Assembly: GCA_019096195.1 (NCBI GenBank)
Contig: JAGTXK010000122.1
Location: 7,501 to 71,500 of the forward strand
Length of the DNA: 64,000 nucleotides
Source: Boletus sp. NGJ
Taxonomy: Eukaryota > Basidiomycota > Agaricomycetes > Boletales > Boletaceae
Reading direction: 5' to 3'
The position numbers were made by a program, and so were the translations under genes. The notes under the pieces were generated by a model. The model made no database searches. It was not told where the DNA came from and saw only the letters and a program-made list of their open reading frames with translations. Positions 613 through 63,466 of this stretch are shown here, piece by piece (position 1 is the first letter of the stretch; every line of letters starts with the position of its first letter).

Positions 613-1055
613 CAATGAATGGTCTATGAAGCTACCTGATGATGATGATGATGATTTGACTCATTGGTAGTGAGATCACTTTGCTTGTCGCTTTGCTGGT
701 GTTTCTCTACATGCACTCCTTTGAAAATAGACATTCGGTAGTACCAATGAATGGTCTCCAGATGCTTTCTGATGGGCCCGGTTTGATTGACCGGTCTGTT
801 GTTAGCTAGACCACTTTGCTACTTTGTTTATGTCTACCACGGGATGATTGATTAGCCAGCCGTTGTTGTAGTGACCACTTTCCTGACAACCAATGAATGG
901 TCTGTGAAACTATCTAATGATGATATCTAATCATTTGAATCATTAGTAGTGAGATCACTTTGCTTGTCGCTTTGCTAGTGTTTTTCCTGGTGAAGCTCCT
1001 CTGAAAGTAGACATTTGGGAGTACCAATGAATGATCTCCAGACCTATCTCGGAAG
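613..1055 (+). repeat. Direct duplication, two ~165-base copies
   Basis: Bases 613-775 and 890-1055 are diverged copies of the same sequence. Each begins accaatgaatggtct, carries a GATGAT run, then gagatcactttgcttgtcgc, and ends in a second accaatgaatg. The spacer (776-889) is related but weaker. The second copy runs directly into the integrase end of the neighbouring retroelement fossil, so it marks the truncated edge of that element. No gene is visible in 385-1040. Confidence 0.7.
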
Positions 1056-4000
1056 AGGTGATCATCCTCTCTCGTGTAGCTTCCAGCGCTTCTTCAATCT
1101 CCTTATGGTTACGCCCAATTTCGTCTGCAAAACCCGTAAGAGATTCCCTTCGAAACCCATTCGTGGTGCGTAGTTTCGTGTGACTTTGAAGGGGATTTCT
1201 CCAGTGGCTAGCCATAGTGACGGTGTTGTTGTGAGAGAATTGGGCTAACTTCAGCCATTCGACCCAGTCGTTTTGTTTCTTTCCGGCATACGTGCGCGGA
1301 GATACTGTTCGAGATCCTCGGTTAACGCGTTCGGTTTGCCCGTCCGTTTGCGGATGGTATGCCGTAGAGATTTTTTGTTTTATGCCAAGAAGCTTACAAA
1401 GCTCTTGGGTGAAAGCAGAAACGAATTGTGGTCCTCGATCTGATACGAGGGTAGAGGGGAGTCCATGTGTTGACCAGACATGGTCTCTAAATAAATAGCA
1501 AGATCTTTCGAAGGAACATGTATCGTAAGTTGGTATAAAAATAACTTCTTTTGAGAATCTGTCCACAACAACACAGATAGCGGTAAAGGATTGTGATGGC
1601 GGTAAGCCTGTAATGAAATCTACTGATAAGATCTTCCCATGGTCTTTTTGCTGCGGGAAGAGGGATGACTTTTCCTGCCGGTGCATTTTGCTTACCCTTC
1701 GTGAGGGCGCACACTTGGCAGTGATCTACATAAGTTTTTACGTCCTTTGTGACTCCTGGCCACGAGAAATATCGAGAAAGAGTATGTATAGTTTTAGAAT
1801 GACCGCCGTGTCCTGCAATAGGCGAATCATGACATAACGTAATGATTTCGGTACGTAGAGATTCAGGTACGTAGATTTGATCTTTTTCGTTTTTGAATAG
1901 ATTAAGTTCTGAGTAGAAAAGGAAATTGTTTATAGCATCGACGTTATGTTTTTTAGATTCTTTTTGTATTTTTGTCATGAGATCGGAAGAAAGAGAAACG
2001 TGATTTATAAATATAGAAGGAGGGAGAACGGTGACGTTTTGATTGTGATCTACAACTGCGTCACCGTGATCTGGTCGTCGAGATAGAGCGTCAGCTCTCC
2101 CATTGGACGATCCAGGTTTGTATACGAAAGAATAATTAAATTCTTGAAGAAGCGCATGCCAACGTGCTTGACGTCCGCTAAGCGTTTGAGGCTTCTTCCA
2201 ATATTCTAGATTTTTATGGTCAGTCCAGATTTCAAACCTTTCGCGACCAATTAAATAATGGCGCCATTCTTCTAAGGCGCGAATTACTGCAAGTAATTCT
2301 TTATCGTAGATCGGGTAGTTGCGCTCTGCGCTGTCAAAAGAGTGAGAGATAAAGGCGACTGGTCGCCAGTTACTCGTCATTGCATAAGGTGGAGAGCACT
2401 GCTCCCGTGGCGATGTCCGAGGCATCGGTTTCCACGCGCATTTCTTGATCGCGATTAGGATACGCGAGAAGTGGCGCTTCCGTAAATTTTCTTTTTAAGT
2501 TCGTGAATGCTTCTTGTTGATCTGGACCCCATTTGAATGGAACGTCTTTCTTGGTAAGATCGTTCAGAGGGTCGCGCGATTTGTGCGAAGCCTTCTATGA
2601 ATCGTCTATAATAATTACAGAGTCCGAGAAAGCCTTGAAGTTGCTTCAAGCGAGTAGGAATTGGCCAATCCATGACCCCAGCTACTTTCTTCGACTGCAT
2701 TTCTACCCCCTCTTTAGATACCACCATTCCTAAGAAATCTACTTTTTCTGCCGAGAAGGTACACTTTTCTGGTTTTACGTAAAGGTCGTTTTCGCGGAGA
2801 CGGCGTAAAACTTCCTTTACAACTTCTTCGTGTTGCTCTTTTGTCTTTTTTGATGTGAATATCATAACGTCGTCGATGTAGATGACGACTACCGCATACA
2901 TGTCGTTAAATATATCGTTCATCATCGTTTGAAACGTGGGGGGAGAGTTCGTAAGACCGAAATACATAACGGTAGGTTCGTATGCTCCAATAGGGGTAAC
3001 GAATGCCGCTTTCCATTCATCGCCTTCTTTGATGCGGACATTGTTATATCCCCATCGGAGATCCATAGCCGTAAATAGATCCGCGTTTTTGAGTCGATCA
3101 ATTAATTGCGGGATAAGAGGGAGTGGATAGGAATTCTTGATCGTTCCTTCGTTTAAATAGCGGTAGTCCATAACCATTCGTTTTTTGCCGTCTTTTTTAG
3201 GGAATGAAGAAGACGGGAGATGTCTGTGGAGATTTGGAGGGTTTGACATAACCCTTCTTGACTTCCTTTTCGATGAACGTTCTGACTTCTTCCATCTCGA
3301 TGTCCGAAAGGGGAATAACACGTCCTTTCTTGGGGATGAAGTCTTCTTTGAGATCGATTGCATGATCCCAGTGTTTTCGTAAAGGCATCCTCTGAGATTC
3401 TTTCTCCGAAAAGACATCTAGAAATTCGTGATAAGTTAATGGAACCTTTTCTTTAAGTCCTTCTTCTATTGTACGTAGTTGAGCCGGCTCGTAAGAGGAA
3501 GTGGGTCCTAGGCCCATAATTTTACAGTAGGAGGTACAGCGAGGAAACGTGATTGTCTGTTTTACCCAATCGATGTCAGGGTTATGACGATATAGCCAGT
3601 CATACCCGATGATCATTCGATGAGTTCCTAATTTAGATATGTACGCGTCTATGACTTCGTAGTGTCCTTCTATTTCCACCATCAGTGTTACCGCGTGACG
3701 GATCGGTCCAATTGCTCCTTCCGAACCGTCAGCATTATGTATCTTAATGGGGTTGTCGATGGTATAAAAAGGTATTCCGTGACGTTTTACATAGTCCTGA
3801 TCTATGAAAGTATGCGACGCTCCCGAATCCAGGAGGGACTGGAAACGGTAACGCGACCACTGGCCGTTAACGTTGCACGATACTATGGTTTCGAGTGAAA
3901 ATTCTCCACCATAGGAAAGTGTAGATGCTTGGTTTAACGTGACCTTTGTGGGTTTATAGATATTCGATATTTTTTGTTGTTTTACGAGGGAATTAAGTAC

Positions 4001-6343
4001 ACTTAATTCTGGTGCCGCGCTCAATTGAGACGCCCTCGCAGATTTCATTGATAGTTTACGTAGTACAGCGGAGAGATCGGAGATAGGAAAATCGGTACTT
4101 GTACATGTCGTAAGAGAAGATGAAAAAGAAGAAGAAAGTTCTTGCCGCTGAGTTCCCTCTGTACTCATTGGCGCTGTCCATTTAAAGCCTGTGCAGCTCG
4201 GGCTTTTGCTTCCACCTCAAATTTGTCTCTATAGTATGCTTCCGCCTCATCGGAAACATAGGTCCTTGCTGCTACACTTGGTGCCGCTGTAGCTGACGGG
4301 AGGTTGCGGGAGTGGTCGTTGTGCGTATGCGCGAGATTGGGTTTCGTTAAAAAAAGAGGGATACTCGTTTTCTCCCTGATTTTGCTCGATGTACAAGCCT
4401 TGGTTCCAGTCCCAAATCTGGCGTTGCATAGGTGGACGACCAGTCCGTTTGAAAGGGTTCGTCGGGCAGTTAGGTTTAATGTGGCCGGGTTTGCCACAGT
4501 GGAAACAGGTTCTGGTTTCCTTGGAAGGTCCAGCCTGCTGGACACCTATTTCCATGGGCGCACCGCGACCCGGTTGTGTTCCTACTGCCGTGTAGGTTGG
4601 GCGATATGAATTGTGTGGGGGCTGCCCACGGGGAGGAGGGAATGAGGAACGTGGGGGTTGAGATCTATGAGGAGGGCCACGCTCGTTCGCAATCTGTTCG
4701 AATGCCCGACCTATCGTTCTATAGTTTATGACTAGGTCTTCGTAGTCAAAATTGCGGGCAGGGCTGTTCAAACGAGATCGTTCGTAGATTTTGAAGTCTA
4801 CCGCCTTTTTCAGTAGAACTTCGGCGTGGTGATCGTCGATATACGACTCCTTTCTCAGAGATCTCAAATCTGTTGTAGGAATAGGTCAATAGGGTGACCG
4901 TTTTGTTTCAAGGCCTCGAGTTTCCTTAATGACTCGTGGGCCAAGGTATCGATACAGAAGTGGGTTTTGATCTGCTCCTGTAACCTATTCCAAGTGGGCC
5001 AAGCATCGGCTCCTTTTGCCGGTAATAAGAGCCCCGTTTGCGTCCGTCTCGATGGTAGCTTCCTCATCTGAGGTAATGCTCCATGATCAATTGTGCGAAG
5101 GATTCCGCTTTTCCTTCGAGACGGGAGAGGACAGCGATGTCCATGATCTTGTTATTTTTCCATTTCTGGGCGTCAACCCAGAGACGGAGTTTTATCCACC
5201 AAGGGCGGAAGGATGACCTTGTGCCGTCCCATTTCCCAGGATCAGCGATTTTCTTTGTGATATTTTCCTTGTCGCGTTCCTGAGTAAGGTCGGCGAGTTT
5301 TTGGACGAGTTCGTCAATGTCGACTCTAGACATATTGAGGGTTTGGTTTAAGAGTGATGTGGGGCGAAGGTAGGAGCGGAAGTATTGAATGCGGTAGAGT
5401 GCGAATGCGGAGGATGGGCGAAGAGGTCTGACTTTGTCGGGGTTTCTGATATAAGTTTTCCTTTTCCTGCGTCGGTCTTCTTTCAGAACCTTACTACCAG
5501 ATATCTTACAATCCGGTTCTGGGGTTCCTACGCCTTCATAGGAGTCGAAGTAGAGGTCGTTGAAAATGATGGGCAACGGTGATGGGGGACCGGAGGATGA
5601 CTGCTTTTACTACAAGCAGGTGTAGCACGGGAGAAAGGCGAGATAAATCTCCTTAACGCTACTTCGTGACGTCACAGGTAATCACGAGAACCTGGGTTCA
5701 CTATCGTAGAACCAGCGTACGCTCAAGTCGGCAACCACCTGAGAAGTGGGGCTAGTGCACTATGCCCGGCAGCAACGTTATCCTTATTTAGTACGCCGGA
5801 CGAGCGTATATGCAAGAGTTTCGGCGAGTTCTTTTCTCGTCACCGTCAAGTGGTGAATACTATGCAGATGTCCCTTAAAACGCTGGGCCCGCGTATATCT
5901 CCTTAGCTCTGGAGTCCGAGCGTTGTGTATAGCAGTCTAATCCAAGTGTTATGAATCCCTTTCGGAAAACAAACCACAAGGCTCGGAAATGCTTTGCAGG
6001 CTACACGAGTCCTGGCTGAACGAATCAGGTGGGAGAGTCTTAGTCCTGGATATTCCTAACCCTACGACGACCGATGGCCGAAGCTAATAGGTTATTGGAG
6101 GAAGATACAAGTGGATTAGACTGGGGATACCAGTCGTCTAAGTGCTAGTTTATATACATGATGAGAGTGCGCACGGACCAGGCTGTGCATGTGATAAATT
6201 ACTACGTATGGTAAGACGGAGATTAATAGGGCTGTGTGAGAAGAGCGGAAATTAAAAGGTCGTGGATCACATGAGGTATGATGTCATATGATGTCATAGG
6301 TTCTAGACCTATCATGTGATATGTTTCCACGGTCACGTGCACA
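1040..6343 (-). mobile_element. Ty3/gypsy LTR retrotransposon fossil
   Basis: Read on the minus strand, the parts come in the Ty3/gypsy order. A Gag-like region with a CCHC zinc knuckle lies about 4250-5576. An aspartic protease region with LLDSGASHTFID lies about 3200-4170. Reverse transcriptase with a YIDD box lies about 2455-3420. RNase H (with TDHKNLEYW) and integrase with an HHCC zinc module and catalytic core lie about 1050-2425. A candidate 5' LTR is at 5621-6343. No matching 3' LTR is visible, because the element ends in an unrelated direct repeat near 1040. It is broken, with roughly half a dozen interruptions, and truncated at one end. Age cannot be set from LTR divergence because only one LTR is present. 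Family assignment is secure. Confidence 0.93.
5621..6343 (-). repeat. Candidate 5' LTR of the gypsy fossil
   Basis: The stretch upstream of the Gag-like region has no coding. It begins TGTAGCACGG and ends GTGCACA on the + strand, giving the TG...CA ends of an LTR, and it contains several ATGATGTCAT/CACGTG-type short palindromes near its U3 side. The boundaries are inferred from the terminal dinucleotides and the position of Gag. No second copy is in the window to confirm them, and the primer-binding site is not clear. Confidence 0.45.
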
Positions 6344-53943: not shown

Positions 53944-54813
53944 TTAAATATACGTGACGAAGAGGGTAGATCCGAAGGCCTGTACGAACGTGACATTCGC
54001 TTGCGTCTGCGCATTTACCATGTCCACGAGATTAGCACCGTCGGGGCGGAAGAGGACGCCATTGGAGTCAGAGGCAGATGCGCTAGTCATCTCTAGCTGT
54101 GTGAAGTTCGCGAGAGGGCGGTTCGCCGCATTGATATCGACTGAGACCATCCACGCAACAGACTCTTCGCAGACTGGATGAGCCGCGGAAGAGGTGAAAT
54201 TATGCCTGACAACCTGGCCGGATGCCTCATTCTGCATGTATACTTCACCAAAGGTCGGAGAGTCGATAACGGCGTAGACCTTGATAGTGTCATTAACATT
54301 CATGCTGAGGTCAGGAAATATGTAGTAGGCTTCAGGGTACCACTGCCACCAAGCTATTCAATGCACGAATGATGAAAACAAATTCGGACTGGAAACTCGA
54401 CACCACCCACCACTGTACGAGACCATTCCACTACTGATCGAAAGGTTGAGACCAGCCCGGAAGAAAGCCCCGGAGGGGCACGGGTTTACCGTGTCGATGC
54501 CAACCCAAACCATGGCAACACCGTCTTCGCCCGAAAGGTCGGGGACGGTGATGTCAGCAGTGACACTGTTGAAACTTCCCTGCTGGTAAAACAAATGAGA
54601 TCGAATATTACCGTAGGCCATAGAGATGAGACGAACAGCTTTCTGAGTCCAATAAGCACCAGTTTCGCCGTAGCTGTACTTTGTGTTGGAGATAGATGAG
54701 TGGCGAGCCTCGCGACTGCGGGCATTGGGAACCTCGACTGGCGAAGAGGAATGGACAGCCAGAGCCGCAGAGGTGAGCAAAAGATTGGTGAAAAGGGCAA
54801 ACTTGGAGACCAT
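53944..54813 (-). CDS. G1 (eqolisin) peptidase-like protein lacking catalytic residues, 251 aa
   Basis: Exons 54813-54637, 54579-54411 and 54353-53944 join in frame (57-base introns). A signal peptide (MVSKFALFTNLLLTSAALA) and short propeptide ending SREAR precede the G1 fold: GSFNSVTADITVPD, VWVGIDTVNPCPSGAFFRAG, SAWWQWYPEAYYIFPDLS, EVYMQNEASGQVV, VCEESVAWMVSVD and a normal C-terminus TLFVTYI. In active eqolisins the catalytic pair is a Gln in the ILQ(T/A)G strand and a Glu in the AEW(I/L)V strand. Aligned by eye, these are Arg (FFRAG) and Ala (VAWMV) here. The protein should be secreted and folded but probably inactive. It faces the sister gene at 56149 head to head and shares its promoter and leader. 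Confidence 0.85.
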
Positions 54814-55234
54814 GGCGCGGGTGATGGAGCTGCGAGTCGTCGATACAGCGAGAGCCTGAGAGAGCATCCCGCAACCTTTATACGTTCGGCACACGTCCTG
54901 AAGGCATGTCCTCCCTGGGGTTTCCTGATTACCAACCCGATTCGTTCCCTGCCCTGTGACTGATAAAGCGTGTGCGTGATGGTTAATGTCCCCCGTCTTC
55001 GCGTTGAATGTAGCCGTGCTTGGAGATGTTTCGTGGTATGTGTTTGAGCCGTACCCAATGCCACCGTAATTATCGCCAATCTGCGATGCGGCGGTATTCC
55101 ACATGCTGATTGTTTGACGCGCATGCCATGGTGAGGTGGTCACTATAGAAATAAAAAACGGGGCAGGTTTGAACAGTAGTTTGAACGTTTAAAGTGTTAC
55201 CGGCTTCAGTCCCATCATGTGCGTGGTCGGACGG
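54700..55234 (-). repeat. Left arm of 535-base inverted repeat
   Basis: Reverse complement of 55728-56262 with only a handful of mismatches noticed. It spans the first ~114 bases of coding (signal peptide and propeptide), the 5' region and about 420 bases of promoter. Homology stops abruptly inside exon 1, just after the SREAR codons. Confidence 0.92.
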
Positions 55235-55727
55235 CACTGACGCTGGCCATGGGGCAGGCCGAAGCAGGCGGCAAGATGCGGCCTCTGCTCCATCCTTCCA
55301 AAATCTTATTTGTCGCATGGTGCTGGAGTGGACTATCGTCAACTCTGCTGAGTCAGCTCGACCCAGTTCTGCACAGCCACAACACATCCACTGCGACACG
55401 TGACCAGACGTAGAGAGCGTCTTCCTTTCTCTGGCTCGTCCATTGGTGTACCTATGCAACCGTCACTACTTTGGAAAATCCTCGAGGAATACGACTAAAG
55501 CCCTAACAACGCCCTATCCTGAATTCGGAACTGAATATCTGGAACCTTTGATAGAGGAACTGTTCTGCATGAAATCAGATTAACCTTTCACCAATGACTC
55601 GGAGATACGCGTTGCATCATGAGGTCGAGGTTTGGCTCCAACAGCTTTTCTGACCCCATCATCCCTCCCGCGAGGAGTGGCGTTCATCAGCCATGTCATC
55701 AAAAAGCACGCGTTACAGTCACTGGAA
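55235..55727. other. Unique spacer of the inverted repeat
   Basis: About 493 bases separating the two arms, without inverted symmetry of its own and without a supported gene. Any shared upstream control sequence or loop would lie here. Confidence 0.6.
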
Positions 55728-56262
55728 CCGTCCGACCACGCACATGATGGGACTGAAGCCGGTAACACTTTAAACGTTCAAACTACTGTTCAAACCTGCC
55801 CCGTTTTTGATTTCTATAGTGACCACCTCACCATGGTATGCGCGTCAAACAATCAGCATGTGGAATACCGCCGCATCGCAGATTGGCGATAATTACGGTG
55901 GCATTGGGTACGGCTCAAACACATACCACGAAACATCTCCAAGCACGGCTACATTCAACGCGAAGACGGGGGACATTAACCATCACGCACACGCTTTATC
56001 AGTCACAGGGCAGGGAACGAATCGGGTTGGTAATCAGGAAACCCCAGGGAGGACATGCCTTCAGGACGTGTGCCGAACGTATAAAGGTTGCGGGATGCTC
56101 TCTCAGGCTCTCGCTGTATCGACGACTCGCAGCTCCATCACCCGCGCCATGGTCTCCAAGTTTGCCCTTTTCACCAATCTTTTGCTCACCTCTGCGGCTC
56201 TGGCTGTCCATTCCTCTTCGCCAGTCGAGGTTCCCAATGCCCGCAGTCGCGAGGCTCGCCAG
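55728..56262 (+). repeat. Right arm of 535-base inverted repeat
   Basis: Mirror of 54700-55234, carrying the promoter and leader of the peptidase gene at 56149. Long frames running through it on either strand belong to promoter sequence and are not genes. Confidence 0.92.
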
Positions 56263-57037
56263 TCATCTTTCTCCCCCTCAGATTTCTGGATTGGTGCTTT
56301 CATTTCTGGGACTGACGTTCGTATCATCCCCATGGTGCACGATCATATCCCAATTTTTTTCTTTTGGCCAACAGGGAGCTTTCAACGCTGTCAGTGGTAC
56401 CATCGCTGCCCCCGACCCTGTACCCGACAGCCGAGATGGTACTATCAATTTTATGGTCGGTATCGACGGCGTCACCTGCCTGAACCGTGCCAGTATACTC
56501 CAGGCTGGTGTCAAAACTTCAGTCAAAGATGGAAATGTCAGCTACAGTGGTGAGAGACGTCGAACTTCCAGTCCCAATTGGGTTTTAATTTCATCATCCG
56601 TGCGTTGGACAGCTTGGGGCATGTGGAACACTAACGACCCCTACTATTTCGACACACTCACTATCGGCAGTGGTGACGTTATAACGACCGCCGTCGTCCT
56701 TACCTCCACGACTACTGGTACAGTGTTCGTTCAGAATGAGATCACTGGCCAGGTTGCCTCCAAGATGTACCAAATGAACTCTATTAATGCTCTTTGCGGG
56801 GCGAGTGCTGAGTGGCTCGTCAGCGACGCTGGTGATAGCATACTGGACACGAGCGGCGTGATCCTCACTCGCGCTTTTGCCTCTGGCCCCAGTGGCCACG
56901 TGTACTCACCGTATAACCCTCAAGATGGTGCTGTTTTCCGCAACTTGACGCAGGGCGGTGCGCTTGTCCTGGGGGTCATCATCGGCAGCGATCAAAATAG
57001 CATCGGTTTCATTTCATCAAGTGCACTGAGCGAGTGA
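56149..57037 (+). CDS. G1 (eqolisin) glutamic peptidase, 255 aa
   Basis: Exons 56149-56316, 56375-56549 and 56613-57037 join in frame (introns of 58 and 63 bases). The signal peptide and propeptide are identical to the minus-strand sister. The mature part follows the G1 fold: GAFNAVSGTIAAPD, VGIDGVTCLNRASILQAGVK with the Gln expected at the catalytic position, SAWGMWNTNDPYYFDTLTIG, VFVQNEITGQVAS and LCGASAEWLVSDAG with the expected catalytic Glu. It should be a secreted acid protease that digests protein outside the cell. The strand usually reading YEWYP is altered (GMWNTNDPYY), so activity or specificity may differ from the classic enzymes. Confidence 0.87.
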
Positions 57038-58438: not shown

Positions 58439-59083
58439 TCATGCAAGCACGACTCTCGGTGGCTCAAAGTTCTTGACGAACTCGAACTGGGGGCCTGTCT
58501 CTGGACTGTGTGGGTATCGCTTGCACTTCTCGACGGTCTTCCAGAGAGCGGCAATGATCCGCAACGCCTCCTCCCCGCTCTTGGCATACGCTGACTCGAC
58601 GAGCCAACAGCCGATGACCATGCCCGTCCGTCCGATCCCACCACGGCAATGTACGGCACTCACCCGCCCTCGCCGCTCGTTGTCCCTCAACACGTCCAGG
58701 ATCGTAAACATGAATTCCCTCGACTCGGGCAGGGACCGATCCTGGATCGGGAACTGATGGTATTCGATGTCGGAGAGGGGGATGTCGTGCGCGTGGGCGA
58801 GGTCAGGGAGGTGAGGCGCGTATGGGGAGAGCTCGCCGGACTCGGTGAGGTCGATAAAGGTACGGACGCCGGCGGCGAGGAGTTTGTCGAGTTTCTGGGT
58901 GGATGATTCGAATGGGGACCAAGGGTATTCGCAGGCGAGGAGTTGGGGGGTTGCCCAGTAGGAGTTGGGGATGGGACGTGGGCAGCCTGTGTGGATGGGT
59001 GGAAGCGACGCACGGCGCTGAGGTTGACAGGCGACGGGCGACTCGCAGAGCTGGATGGTGGGGATGCTGAAAGAGTGAGCCAT
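58439..59083 (-). CDS. Cys-dependent protein phosphatase (PTP/DSP superfamily), 214 aa
   Basis: A single-exon gene. The signature loop VHCRGGIGRTGMVIGCWLV carries the catalytic Cys and Arg (HCxxGxxRT). Upstream, YHQFPIQDRSLPES provides the general-acid Asp of a WPD-like loop. FIDLTESGELSPY and EYPWSPFESSTQKLDKLLAAGV mark the first strand and helix usual in this compact class. It should remove phosphate from Tyr or mixed Tyr/Ser substrates in the cytosol. Length is normal for the family, and no signal peptide or extra domain is seen. Confidence 0.9.
   Translation of the reverse strand: MAHSFSIPTIQLCESPVACQPQRRASLPPIHTGCPRPIPNSYWATPQLLACEYPWSPFESSTQKLDKLLAAGVRTFIDLTESGELSPYAPHLPDLAHAHDIPLSDIEYHQFPIQDRSLPESREFMFTILDVLRDNERRGRVSAVHCRGGIGRTGMVIGCWLVESAYAKSGEEALRIIAALWKTVEKCKRYPHSPETGPQFEFVKNFEPPRVVLA

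Positions 59084-63466
<4,383 letters not shown>

What the first reader, a model, noticed from the sequence alone, without database searches (positions are those of the whole stretch)
53944..57037. Head-to-head eqolisin pair: shared leader, one partner seemingly catalytically dead
Seen: two G1-type genes diverge from a common centre. The promoter, 5' region, signal peptide and propeptide are a nearly perfect inverted repeat, but similarity drops sharply after the propeptide. The plus gene keeps Gln (ILQAG) and Glu (AEWLV) at the expected catalytic positions. The minus gene has Arg (FFRAG) and Ala (VAWMV) yet keeps an open frame, good introns and the structural WYPEAYY block. Known: eqolisins use a Gln/Glu dyad. 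Inference: the pair is co-expressed and co-secreted, and the inactive partner may be a decoy, inhibitor or binding protein for the active one or for host inhibitors.
Basis: partly seen in the sequence, partly recalled or inferred. Interest (0 to 1): 0.82.

Follow-up and report, generated by a model that had tools for sequence, protein, structure and literature searches.

The report
Fast-evolving dead protease gene pair
Two back-to-back fungal genes that look like acid proteases share a recently copied start region, but both have lost a catalytic residue and belong to a large family whose mature proteins change faster than their introns, which suggests a protease fold reused for some other, competitive job.

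Summary
The inverted repeat is real: two 547-nt arms with 4 mismatches, covering promoter, 5'UTR, signal peptide and propeptide. Both genes are G1/eqolisin-fold genes (PF01828).

In aspergilloglutamic peptidase it is Glu B110, the second Glu of AEWIVED, not the Glu of AEW. The plus gene has Ser there (AEWLVSD). So plus keeps Gln53 but lacks Glu136; minus lacks both. This is not an active/dead pair.

The pair belongs to 27 alignable G1 genes in this genome; 20 lack Gln53 and/or Glu136. By intron distance the partners rank only 13th and 11th of 18 for each other, so the identical leaders point to recent gene conversion. A second head-to-head pair looks the same.

For dyad-less genes tested in two lineages, mature exons change faster at nonsynonymous than synonymous sites (omega 1.88, LRT against 1 = 17.2; omega 2.35, LRT 28.1); three other dyad-less pairs do not. 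Scaffold residues stay, cleft residues go.

Best reading: pseudoproteases under diversifying selection, probably secreted binding or antagonist proteins. Ligand, secretion and expression are untested.

The parts
54688..55234 (-). Inverted-repeat arm of the minus gene: promoter, 5'UTR, signal peptide and propeptide
   Evidence: 547 nt, 4 mismatches to the other arm
55728..56274 (+). Inverted-repeat arm of the plus gene
55235..55727 (.). Spacer between the arms (493 nt)
56080..56085 (+). TATAAA, likely core promoter of the plus gene
   Evidence: read; lies in the 5' segment conserved among paralogs
54877..54882 (-). TATAAA, likely core promoter of the minus gene
   Evidence: read, mirror of 56080-56085
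56149..56316 (+). Plus gene exon 1 (leader, propeptide, start of mature domain)
   Evidence: splice-aware model
56317..56374 (+). Plus gene intron 1, homologous in position and sequence to paralog introns
56375..56549 (+). Plus gene exon 2
56550..56612 (+). Plus gene intron 2
56613..57037 (+). Plus gene exon 3 with stop
56501..56503 (+). Plus gene codon of Gln99 = SGP Gln53 (kept)
56810..56812 (+).
56822..56824 (+). Plus gene Ser185 at the place of the catalytic Glu136
54637..54813 (-). Minus gene exon 1
54580..54636 (-). Minus gene intron 1
54411..54579 (-). Minus gene exon 2
54354..54410 (-). Minus gene intron 2
53944..54353 (-). Minus gene exon 3 with stop
54457..54459 (-). Minus gene Arg100 at the place of catalytic Gln53
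54142..54144 (-). Minus gene Ser186 at the place of catalytic Glu136
56477..56479 (+). Plus gene Cys91 (= Cys47), first half of the conserved disulfide
56795..56797 (+). Plus gene Cys176 (= Cys127), second half of the conserved disulfide
54478..54480 (-). Minus gene Cys93 (= Cys47)
54169..54171 (-). Minus gene Cys177 (= Cys127)

Best explanation
The pair are two members of a large pseudo-eqolisin family in a fungus, most of whose alignable members no longer have the Gln/Glu catalytic dyad. Shown: both window genes lack Glu136 (minus also Gln53); scaffold residues and the disulfide cysteines remain; on the branches tested, the mature exons change faster at nonsynonymous than at synonymous sites. 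Strongly inferred: the two leaders are identical because a stretch of about 540 bp (promoter to propeptide) was recently copied from one divergent paralog to the other by ectopic gene conversion, leaving the mature exons distinct. Inferred: both proteins are secreted under the same promoter and work as binding or antagonist proteins, with the former substrate cleft and loops as the variable ligand-facing surface, in an interaction that rewards novelty (rival microbes, non-self recognition, or host or prey factors). The choice of partner is open.
For: Dyad: PDB alignments, published catalytic residues, paralog alignment, codon places. Family: 44 exon-level PF01828 matches in the genome (a lower bound by its own note); splice-aware models; 20 of 27 alignable genes lack Q53 and/or E136. 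Scaffold kept in the 20: Cys47 19/19, Cys127 20/20, Asp87 20/20, Asn107 20/20, Gly101 20/20, Pro26 20/20, Gly8 18/18; cleft residues lost: Glu69 kept 2/19, Ile51 2/19, Tyr71 5/19. Selection: C7plus against intact paralog C12_51298p KN 0.60, KS 0.37, intron K 0.27 (bootstrap fraction KN<=KS 0.0015, KN<=intron 0.0005); C7minus 0.62/0.42/0.34 (0.013, 0.0015); control intact pair C12/C6 0.08/0.19/0.20. Among 19 genes with one intron family, pN exceeds intron divergence in 170 of 171 pairs (not independent), the exception being the dyad-intact C12/C6 pair. Branch omega for three dyad-lost genes 1.88, LRT against 1 = 17.2; plus 1.90 (LRT 6.6), minus 1.83 (LRT 6.0); with columns near gaps masked 2.05 (LRT 12.4) and 2.96 (LRT 14.2); separate lineage omega 2.35, LRT 28.1, against 0.56 in its sisters, two ratios against one LRT 25.2. 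Not compensated frameshifts: 633 of 696 aligned bases of plus against C12 lie in the same frame. Conversion: the leader is identical in the aligned core while the partner ranks 13 of 18 (plus) and 11 of 18 (minus) by intron distance; second case in L024.
Against: No expression, protein or ligand data; secretion rests on the look of the leader, no predictor was run. In the 8-gene model the three-class fit is not significantly better than one ratio for all branches (omega 1.53; lnL -3954.45 against -3956.23), so omega above 1 is supported there but a link to dyad loss is not; that link is significant only in the second lineage. The tree is a near-star and the deep tree is poorly resolved (9 of 26 inner branches starred); in the free-ratio fit the branch above C12/C6 goes to the bound of omega (20), and in the 5-gene star C12's own branch takes 2.04, so polarity is not secure. 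Two genes that keep the dyad (C75_14199p, C89_931237m) also show KN>KS against C12. Three dyad-less pairs do not: C133_279108m/276642m 0.57 against 0.63, C133_279108m/280764p 0.81 against 0.85, C133_386620p/50849m 0.08 against 0.14. Several cleft positions are half kept (Trp39 9/19, Trp67 10/19, Asp43 11/19, Gly55 16/20). Introns could be low because of gene conversion or splicing constraint. My gene models forbid stops by construction, and four dyad-less ones use an intron over 90 nt or a third intron (C68_90877p, C133_164439p, C133_50849m, C58_112883p). G1 expansion as a count is already in print.
Confidence: 0.57

Rival explanations
1. Active plus protease with an inactive minus partner acting as its decoy, inhibitor or binding protein.
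For: Shared promoter and leader; the minus gene keeps WYPEAYY and lacks the dyad.
Against: The plus gene lacks Glu136, Trp39, Glu69, Tyr71 and Pro72. Dyad-less members are 20 of 27 alignable genes. Cleft residues are kept less than core residues.
Confidence: 0.05
2. Decoys for inhibitors aimed at the active paralogs (for example C12, C40_452473m, C95), in an arms race with inhibitors.
For: Dyad-intact paralogs exist in the genome; diversifying selection fits an arms race.
Against: Mimicry of the active site predicts a conserved cleft; cleft-facing positions are kept less than core-facing ones.
Confidence: 0.12
3. Still enzymes, with new catalytic residues and new substrates.
For: Fold and leader kept; selection for change. 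Two dyad-intact genes are also accelerated, as adaptation of substrate specificity would give.
Against: No new shared residue: position 136 holds S, E, Q, A, G, R, I, Y and position 53 holds Q, R, G, E, L, S, N, M among the 20 genes.
Confidence: 0.14
4. Relaxed or neutral decay: duplicated proteases drifting into pseudogenes.
For: Seven fragments were set aside; at K 0.2 a neutral copy of this length still lacks stops in 4% of simulations; three dyad-less pairs have KN not above KS.
Against: Omega is above 1, not 1, on the tested branches (LRT 17.2 and 28.1); the named scaffold residues are invariant; 18 of the 20 dyad-less models run from ATG to stop, though the models forbid stops by construction.
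Confidence: 0.06
5. The near-identical arms are a recent inverted duplication, with the bodies replaced or changed later, rather than conversion between old paralogs.
For: Both routes give identical arms; cannot tell them apart by itself.
Against: Intron distance between partners (p 0.28) is that of other family members, and the partner ranks 13 and 11 of 18. A second head-to-head pair shows leader-centred identity with divergent bodies.
Confidence: 0.12

Closest known systems
Eqolisins / glutamic peptidases, MEROPS G1, Pfam PF01828 (scytalidoglutamic peptidase 1S2B/2IFW, aspergilloglutamic peptidase 1Y43)
   Same: Homology over the mature domain (E 1.2e-18 and 1.5e-20 to 1y43 chain B), leader, Cys47 and Cys127, Asp87, Asn107 and other scaffold residues.
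   Different: Catalytic Glu136 replaced by Ser in both genes and Gln53 by Arg in minus; further cleft residues lost.
Expanded 'glutamic peptidase' sets of wood-decay fungi (counts: Phanerochaete carnosa 34, Phlebiopsis gigantea 15, P. chrysosporium 11; a 14-gene Peptidase G1 cluster in Coniophora olivacea)
   Same: Comparable family size (PMC6540522 section 19 read; PMC5689174 passage seen).
   Different: The parts seen give counts only; no statement on catalytic residues or on selection was seen there.
Pseudoproteases / non-peptidase homologues in general
   Same: Protease fold without catalytic residues (seen as search listings only).
   Different: None of the 10 titles and abstract openings listed of 157 concerns the G1 fold; here the group is large and shows diversifying selection.
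Snake-venom phospholipases and conotoxins: conserved leader and introns, accelerated mature exons (recalled, not tested)
   Same: Works alike in evolutionary mode: introns and leader more conserved than mature exons.
   Different: No homology claimed, no toxicity known; the 5'UTR here is about as diverged as the introns (median 0.22 and 0.24), so it is ordinary rather than specially conserved, except inside the two converted pairs.

Membership tests
Peptidase family G1 (eqolisins) as a fold family | PF01828 match above the curated cut-off (22.3 bits) | tested here: met
   plus 118.9, minus 142.8 bits
Peptidase family G1 (eqolisins) as a fold family | Secretion leader and propeptide before the domain | tested here: inconclusive
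   Hydrophobic leader read from the sequence; no signal-peptide program was run. The dibasic site seen in 5 of the 6 dyad-intact genes with a modelled start is absent from both window genes.
Peptidase family G1 (eqolisins) as a fold family | Conserved disulfide cysteines (SGP precursor C101/C181, that is 47/127) | tested here: met
   Both cysteines present in both genes; pairing itself not testable; literature passage
Active eqolisin | Catalytic Gln53 | tested here: not met
   Kept in plus, Arg in minus, so not met for minus only
Active eqolisin | Catalytic Glu136 | tested here: not met
   Ser in both genes
Active eqolisin | Acid, pepstatin-insensitive peptidase activity | not testable with these tools
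   No assay
Pseudoprotease | Protease fold, catalytic residues absent, gene maintained | tested here: met
   By sequence only: open modelled frames, named scaffold residues kept, omega above 1 rather than 1
Gene-conversion tract | Segment nearly identical between paralogs whose flanks are no closer than family average, with abrupt borders | tested here: met
Venom-like or effector-like diversification | Nonsynonymous rate above synonymous and intron rate in the mature part | tested here: met
   Met for the window genes; not in three other dyad-less pairs for KS; function as toxin or effector not tested

The most novel reading that the evidence does not exclude
A fungus has turned the eqolisin protease fold into a repertoire of about twenty secreted, non-catalytic, rapidly diversifying recognition or antagonist proteins. 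Loss of catalysis and gene-wide positive selection arose at least twice from active ancestors, and head-to-head pairs swap promoter-and-leader blocks by gene conversion, so that new mature domains stay under the same secretion programme.
Probability: 0.38. Interest if true: 0.85.

Novelty: new variant of a known kind. Interest (0 to 1): 0.7.

Why it matters
Peptidase counts of wood-decay fungi list such genes as glutamic peptidases. If most are dead and under diversifying selection, the counts mislead, and a protease fold has become a variable surface. That would be a pseudoenzyme radiation with dyad-intact paralogs in the same genome as built-in controls, and it makes the question of what drives it directly testable by binding assays, expression during confrontation, and population data.

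Tried and rejected
Active/dead couple: rejected, because the catalytic Glu was misassigned.

Recent duplication as the source of the arms: disfavoured against conversion, because intron and mature distances between the partners are family-average.

Compensated frameshifts as the cause of the high amino-acid change: checked by nucleotide alignment and rejected.

Misalignment near gaps as the cause of omega above 1: omega of the dyad-lost class rises, not falls, when columns near gaps are masked.

Repeat-induced point mutation or local hypermutation: not tested directly; it should hit the short introns as well, and these are less diverged than the exons.

Resolving which paralog is sister to each window gene: failed, long branches and low support.

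Naming the organism: not tested. Introns and an LTR-type element in the window suggest a eukaryote, G1 genes with introns a fungus; the G1 number resembles that of phlebioid basidiomycetes, which is no identification.

Structure prediction: not run.

Neighbours: 10 window frames scanned with Pfam, 5 without any match, one with a below-cut-off match that I take for chance; no tRNA (bacterial code).

Literature: the searches listed no title or abstract opening on dyad-less eqolisin radiations or positive selection in eqolisins (listed of found: 9 of 9, 15 of 248, 0, 10 of 157, 11 of 11, 9 of 9, 7 of 7, 0, 10 of 13); the library holds open-licence papers only. Passages of PMC4282482 and PMC4256170 added nothing on this.
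Full report
What is there. The window lies in contig C7 (7501-71500) of a 32.8-Mb, 141-contig genome. Two genes diverge from a common centre. Splice-aware modelling with a profile of the pair and the two solved G1 enzymes gives the plus gene exons 56149-56316, 56375-56549 and 56613-57037 and the minus gene exons 54813-54637, 54579-54411 and 54353-53944, with introns of 58, 63, 57 and 57 nt at homologous places. At E up to 0.001 both products hit only PF01828; they match aspergilloglutamic peptidase heavy chain (1y43_B) at E 1.2e-18 (plus) and 1.5e-20 (minus).

The inverted repeat. The arms 54688-55234 and 55728-56274 are 547 nt with 4 mismatches, two of them in the last 13 nt of the coding end. 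They run from 421 nt upstream of the ATG to codon 42 (first differences at codons 38 and 41) and are separated by 493 nt. The genome search gave no third full-length copy; of 26 further partial matches (63-82% identity, most of them in the TATA-to-propeptide part), 23 lie at loci with a G1 gene or fragment, and those at C46, C23 and C1:115416 gave no G1 model (alignment).

The catalytic residues. Site-directed mutagenesis and structure place the dyad at Gln B24 and Glu B110 of aspergilloglutamic peptidase, with Trp B10 bonded to Glu B110 (PMC8147669, passages seen), and at Gln53 and Glu136 of the Scytalidium enzyme (PMC6154417: abstract, passages and sections 14 and 20 seen). By the chain numbers printed, Glu B110 is the second Glu of AEWIVED. 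The plus gene reads AEWLVSD there: Ser for the catalytic Glu; it also has Met for Trp39, Met for Glu69, Asn for Tyr71 and Thr for Pro72. The minus gene has Arg for Gln53, Gln for Glu69, Ala for Glu132 and Ser for Glu136. So neither gene has the full G1 dyad. Jensen et al. state that the dyad was strictly conserved in all family G1 members then in MEROPS (PMC3009609, passages seen).

The family. PF01828 rings at 44 exon-level places in the genome, a lower bound. I fetched these regions and the other leader hits and modelled genes. Twenty-seven genes could be aligned over the mature domain, 7 fragments were set aside, and one locus (C50) gives the same protein as C35_146910m. Seven of 27 keep Gln53 and Glu136; two of these are doubtful (C114_25894m lacks the 67-72 block and a start, C6_6262p has a doubtful 3' end). 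Twenty of 27 lack one or both. Five of the 20 dyad-less proteins were scanned and still reach 69-104 bits against PF01828, against 269 bits for the intact C12_51298p. Identity to C12 among the 20: Cys47 19 of 19, Cys127 20 of 20, Asp87, Asn107, Gly101 and Pro26 20 of 20, Gly8 18 of 18, but Glu69 2 of 19, Ile51 2 of 19 and Tyr71 5 of 19; Trp39 (9 of 19), Trp67 (10 of 19), Asp43 (11 of 19) and Gly55 (16 of 20) lie between. For 23 strand positions around Gln53, Trp67 and Glu136, assigned to cleft (12) or core (11) by beta-strand alternation (my inference from the published orientation), cleft-facing cells without positions 53 and 136 are kept in 78 of 193 and core-facing cells in 132 of 214 (Fisher p 1.9e-5; cells of related genes are not independent).

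Selection. The introns fall into two sequence families. Within the larger one (19 genes, 171 pairs, not independent) median divergence (p) is 0.24 for introns, 0.22 for 5'UTR, 0.46 for synonymous and 0.51 for nonsynonymous sites; nonsynonymous exceeds intron divergence in 170 of 171 pairs, the exception being the dyad-intact pair C12/C6, and exceeds synonymous in 135 of 171. Within the smaller family (6 genes, 15 pairs) the counts are 14 and 9 of 15. For chosen pairs: C7plus/C12 KN 0.60 [0.49-0.72], KS 0.37 [0.26-0.51], intron 0.27 [0.16-0.40]; C7minus/C12 0.62, 0.42, 0.34; C7plus/C7minus 0.84, 0.59, 0.35; control C12/C6 0.08, 0.19, 0.20; C127_211467m/C40_452473m (the first has Arg at 53, the second is intact) 0.21, 0.40, 0.22. 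Pairwise codon likelihood agrees for the window genes against C12 (omega 1.72 and 1.68, LRT against 1 = 5.7 and 5.5). Nucleotide alignment of C7plus/C12 shows 72% identity, 633 of 696 aligned bases in the same frame. A branch model on 8 genes and 180 ungapped codons gives omega 1.88 for C7plus, C7minus and C35_149908m (LRT against 1 = 17.2) and 1.38 for the dyad-intact C95, C75_14199p and C89; but one ratio for all branches (1.53) fits nearly as well (lnL -3956.23 against -3954.45), so the model supports omega above 1, not a difference between dyad-lost and dyad-intact branches. In the free fit the tips C12 and C6 have 0.27 and 0.58 and the branch above them runs to the bound. With columns within 3 or 5 of a gap masked the dyad-lost omega is 2.05 (102 codons) and 2.96 (59 codons); in a 5-gene star it is 1.70, with C12's branch at 2.04 and C95 at 0.97. 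In the other intron family, C44 and two C21 genes have 2.35 against 0.56 for C40_452473m and C127 (LRT against 1 = 28.1; two ratios against one = 25.2). Results against a universal rule: C133_279108m/276642m, C133_279108m/280764p and C133_386620p/50849m show no KN excess over KS, and C75_14199p and C89 keep the dyad yet show it. Neutral decay is disfavoured by omega above 1 and by the invariant scaffold residues; absence of stops alone is only moderate evidence (P 0.04 at K 0.2, 0.018 at K 0.27), and the models forbid stops by construction.

Origin of the identical leaders. The two genes are not a young duplicate: within the larger intron family the partner ranks 13 of 18 for plus and 11 of 18 for minus by intron distance, and 6 and 4 of 18 by amino-acid identity. 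Their leaders are identical in the aligned core, against at most 82% between plus and any other gene. The simplest account is a recent copying of about 540 bp between inverted paralogs. A second head-to-head pair, C133_279108m/280764p (L024), has 366-nt arms at 97% over the leader while its mature parts share 31% of amino acids. Two other divergent arrangements (C75, two G1 genes; C1, one fragment and one leader hit) have only 64-66 nt arms at 86% and 82%, so homogenised leaders are not the rule.

How it most likely works. Shown: fold-family membership by sequence, loss of the dyad, retention of named scaffold residues, nonsynonymous excess on the tested branches, near-identical promoters and leaders. 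Inferred: secretion of both; a binding or antagonist role with the former cleft as variable surface. The decoy reading is weakened by the pattern of cleft change; new catalysis by the absence of any shared replacement residue.

What is known. The expansion as a count is in print: 34 glutamic peptidase genes in Phanerochaete carnosa, 15 in Phlebiopsis gigantea, 11 in P. chrysosporium (PMC6540522, section 19 read), and a 14-gene Peptidase G1 cluster in Coniophora olivacea (PMC5689174, passage seen). The 2018 eqolisin study removed sequences with substitutions in conserved positions before analysis, without claiming that they are non-functional homologs (section 14). I saw no report of a dyad-less G1 radiation or of positive selection in it among the titles and abstract openings listed by the searches.

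Noticed in passing
window 958-4216, minus strand: Pieces of an LTR-type retroelement: integrase core (PF00665) and retroviral-type aspartic protease (PF08284).
   Followed up: no
window 58442-59128, minus strand: Dual-specificity phosphatase-like gene next to the pair (PF22784 and related models).
   Followed up: no
window 60381-61019, plus strand: Alpha-amylase family exon (PF00128).
   Followed up: no
L024:4292-4657 and 5817-6182: Second head-to-head G1 pair with 366-nt inverted-repeat leaders at 97% and divergent, dyad-less mature parts.
   Followed up: yes
L011 (C40:449506 minus): G1 paralog with Gln at the catalytic Glu position, beside a dyad-intact tandem neighbour with 84% amino-acid identity in the mature part: a recent loss.
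   Followed up: partly
L019 and L023: C35:146910 and C50:124791 give the same G1 protein on different contigs, either a recent copy or two haplotypes in the assembly.
   Followed up: no
L031, L032, L038: Three loci with good leaders but truncated G1 domains lacking the Gln53 strand: likely pseudogenes or short products.
   Followed up: partly
L013 (C6:6262 plus): Dyad-intact G1 gene whose 3' end has a frame break that the model bridges with a doubtful 49-nt intron.
   Followed up: no
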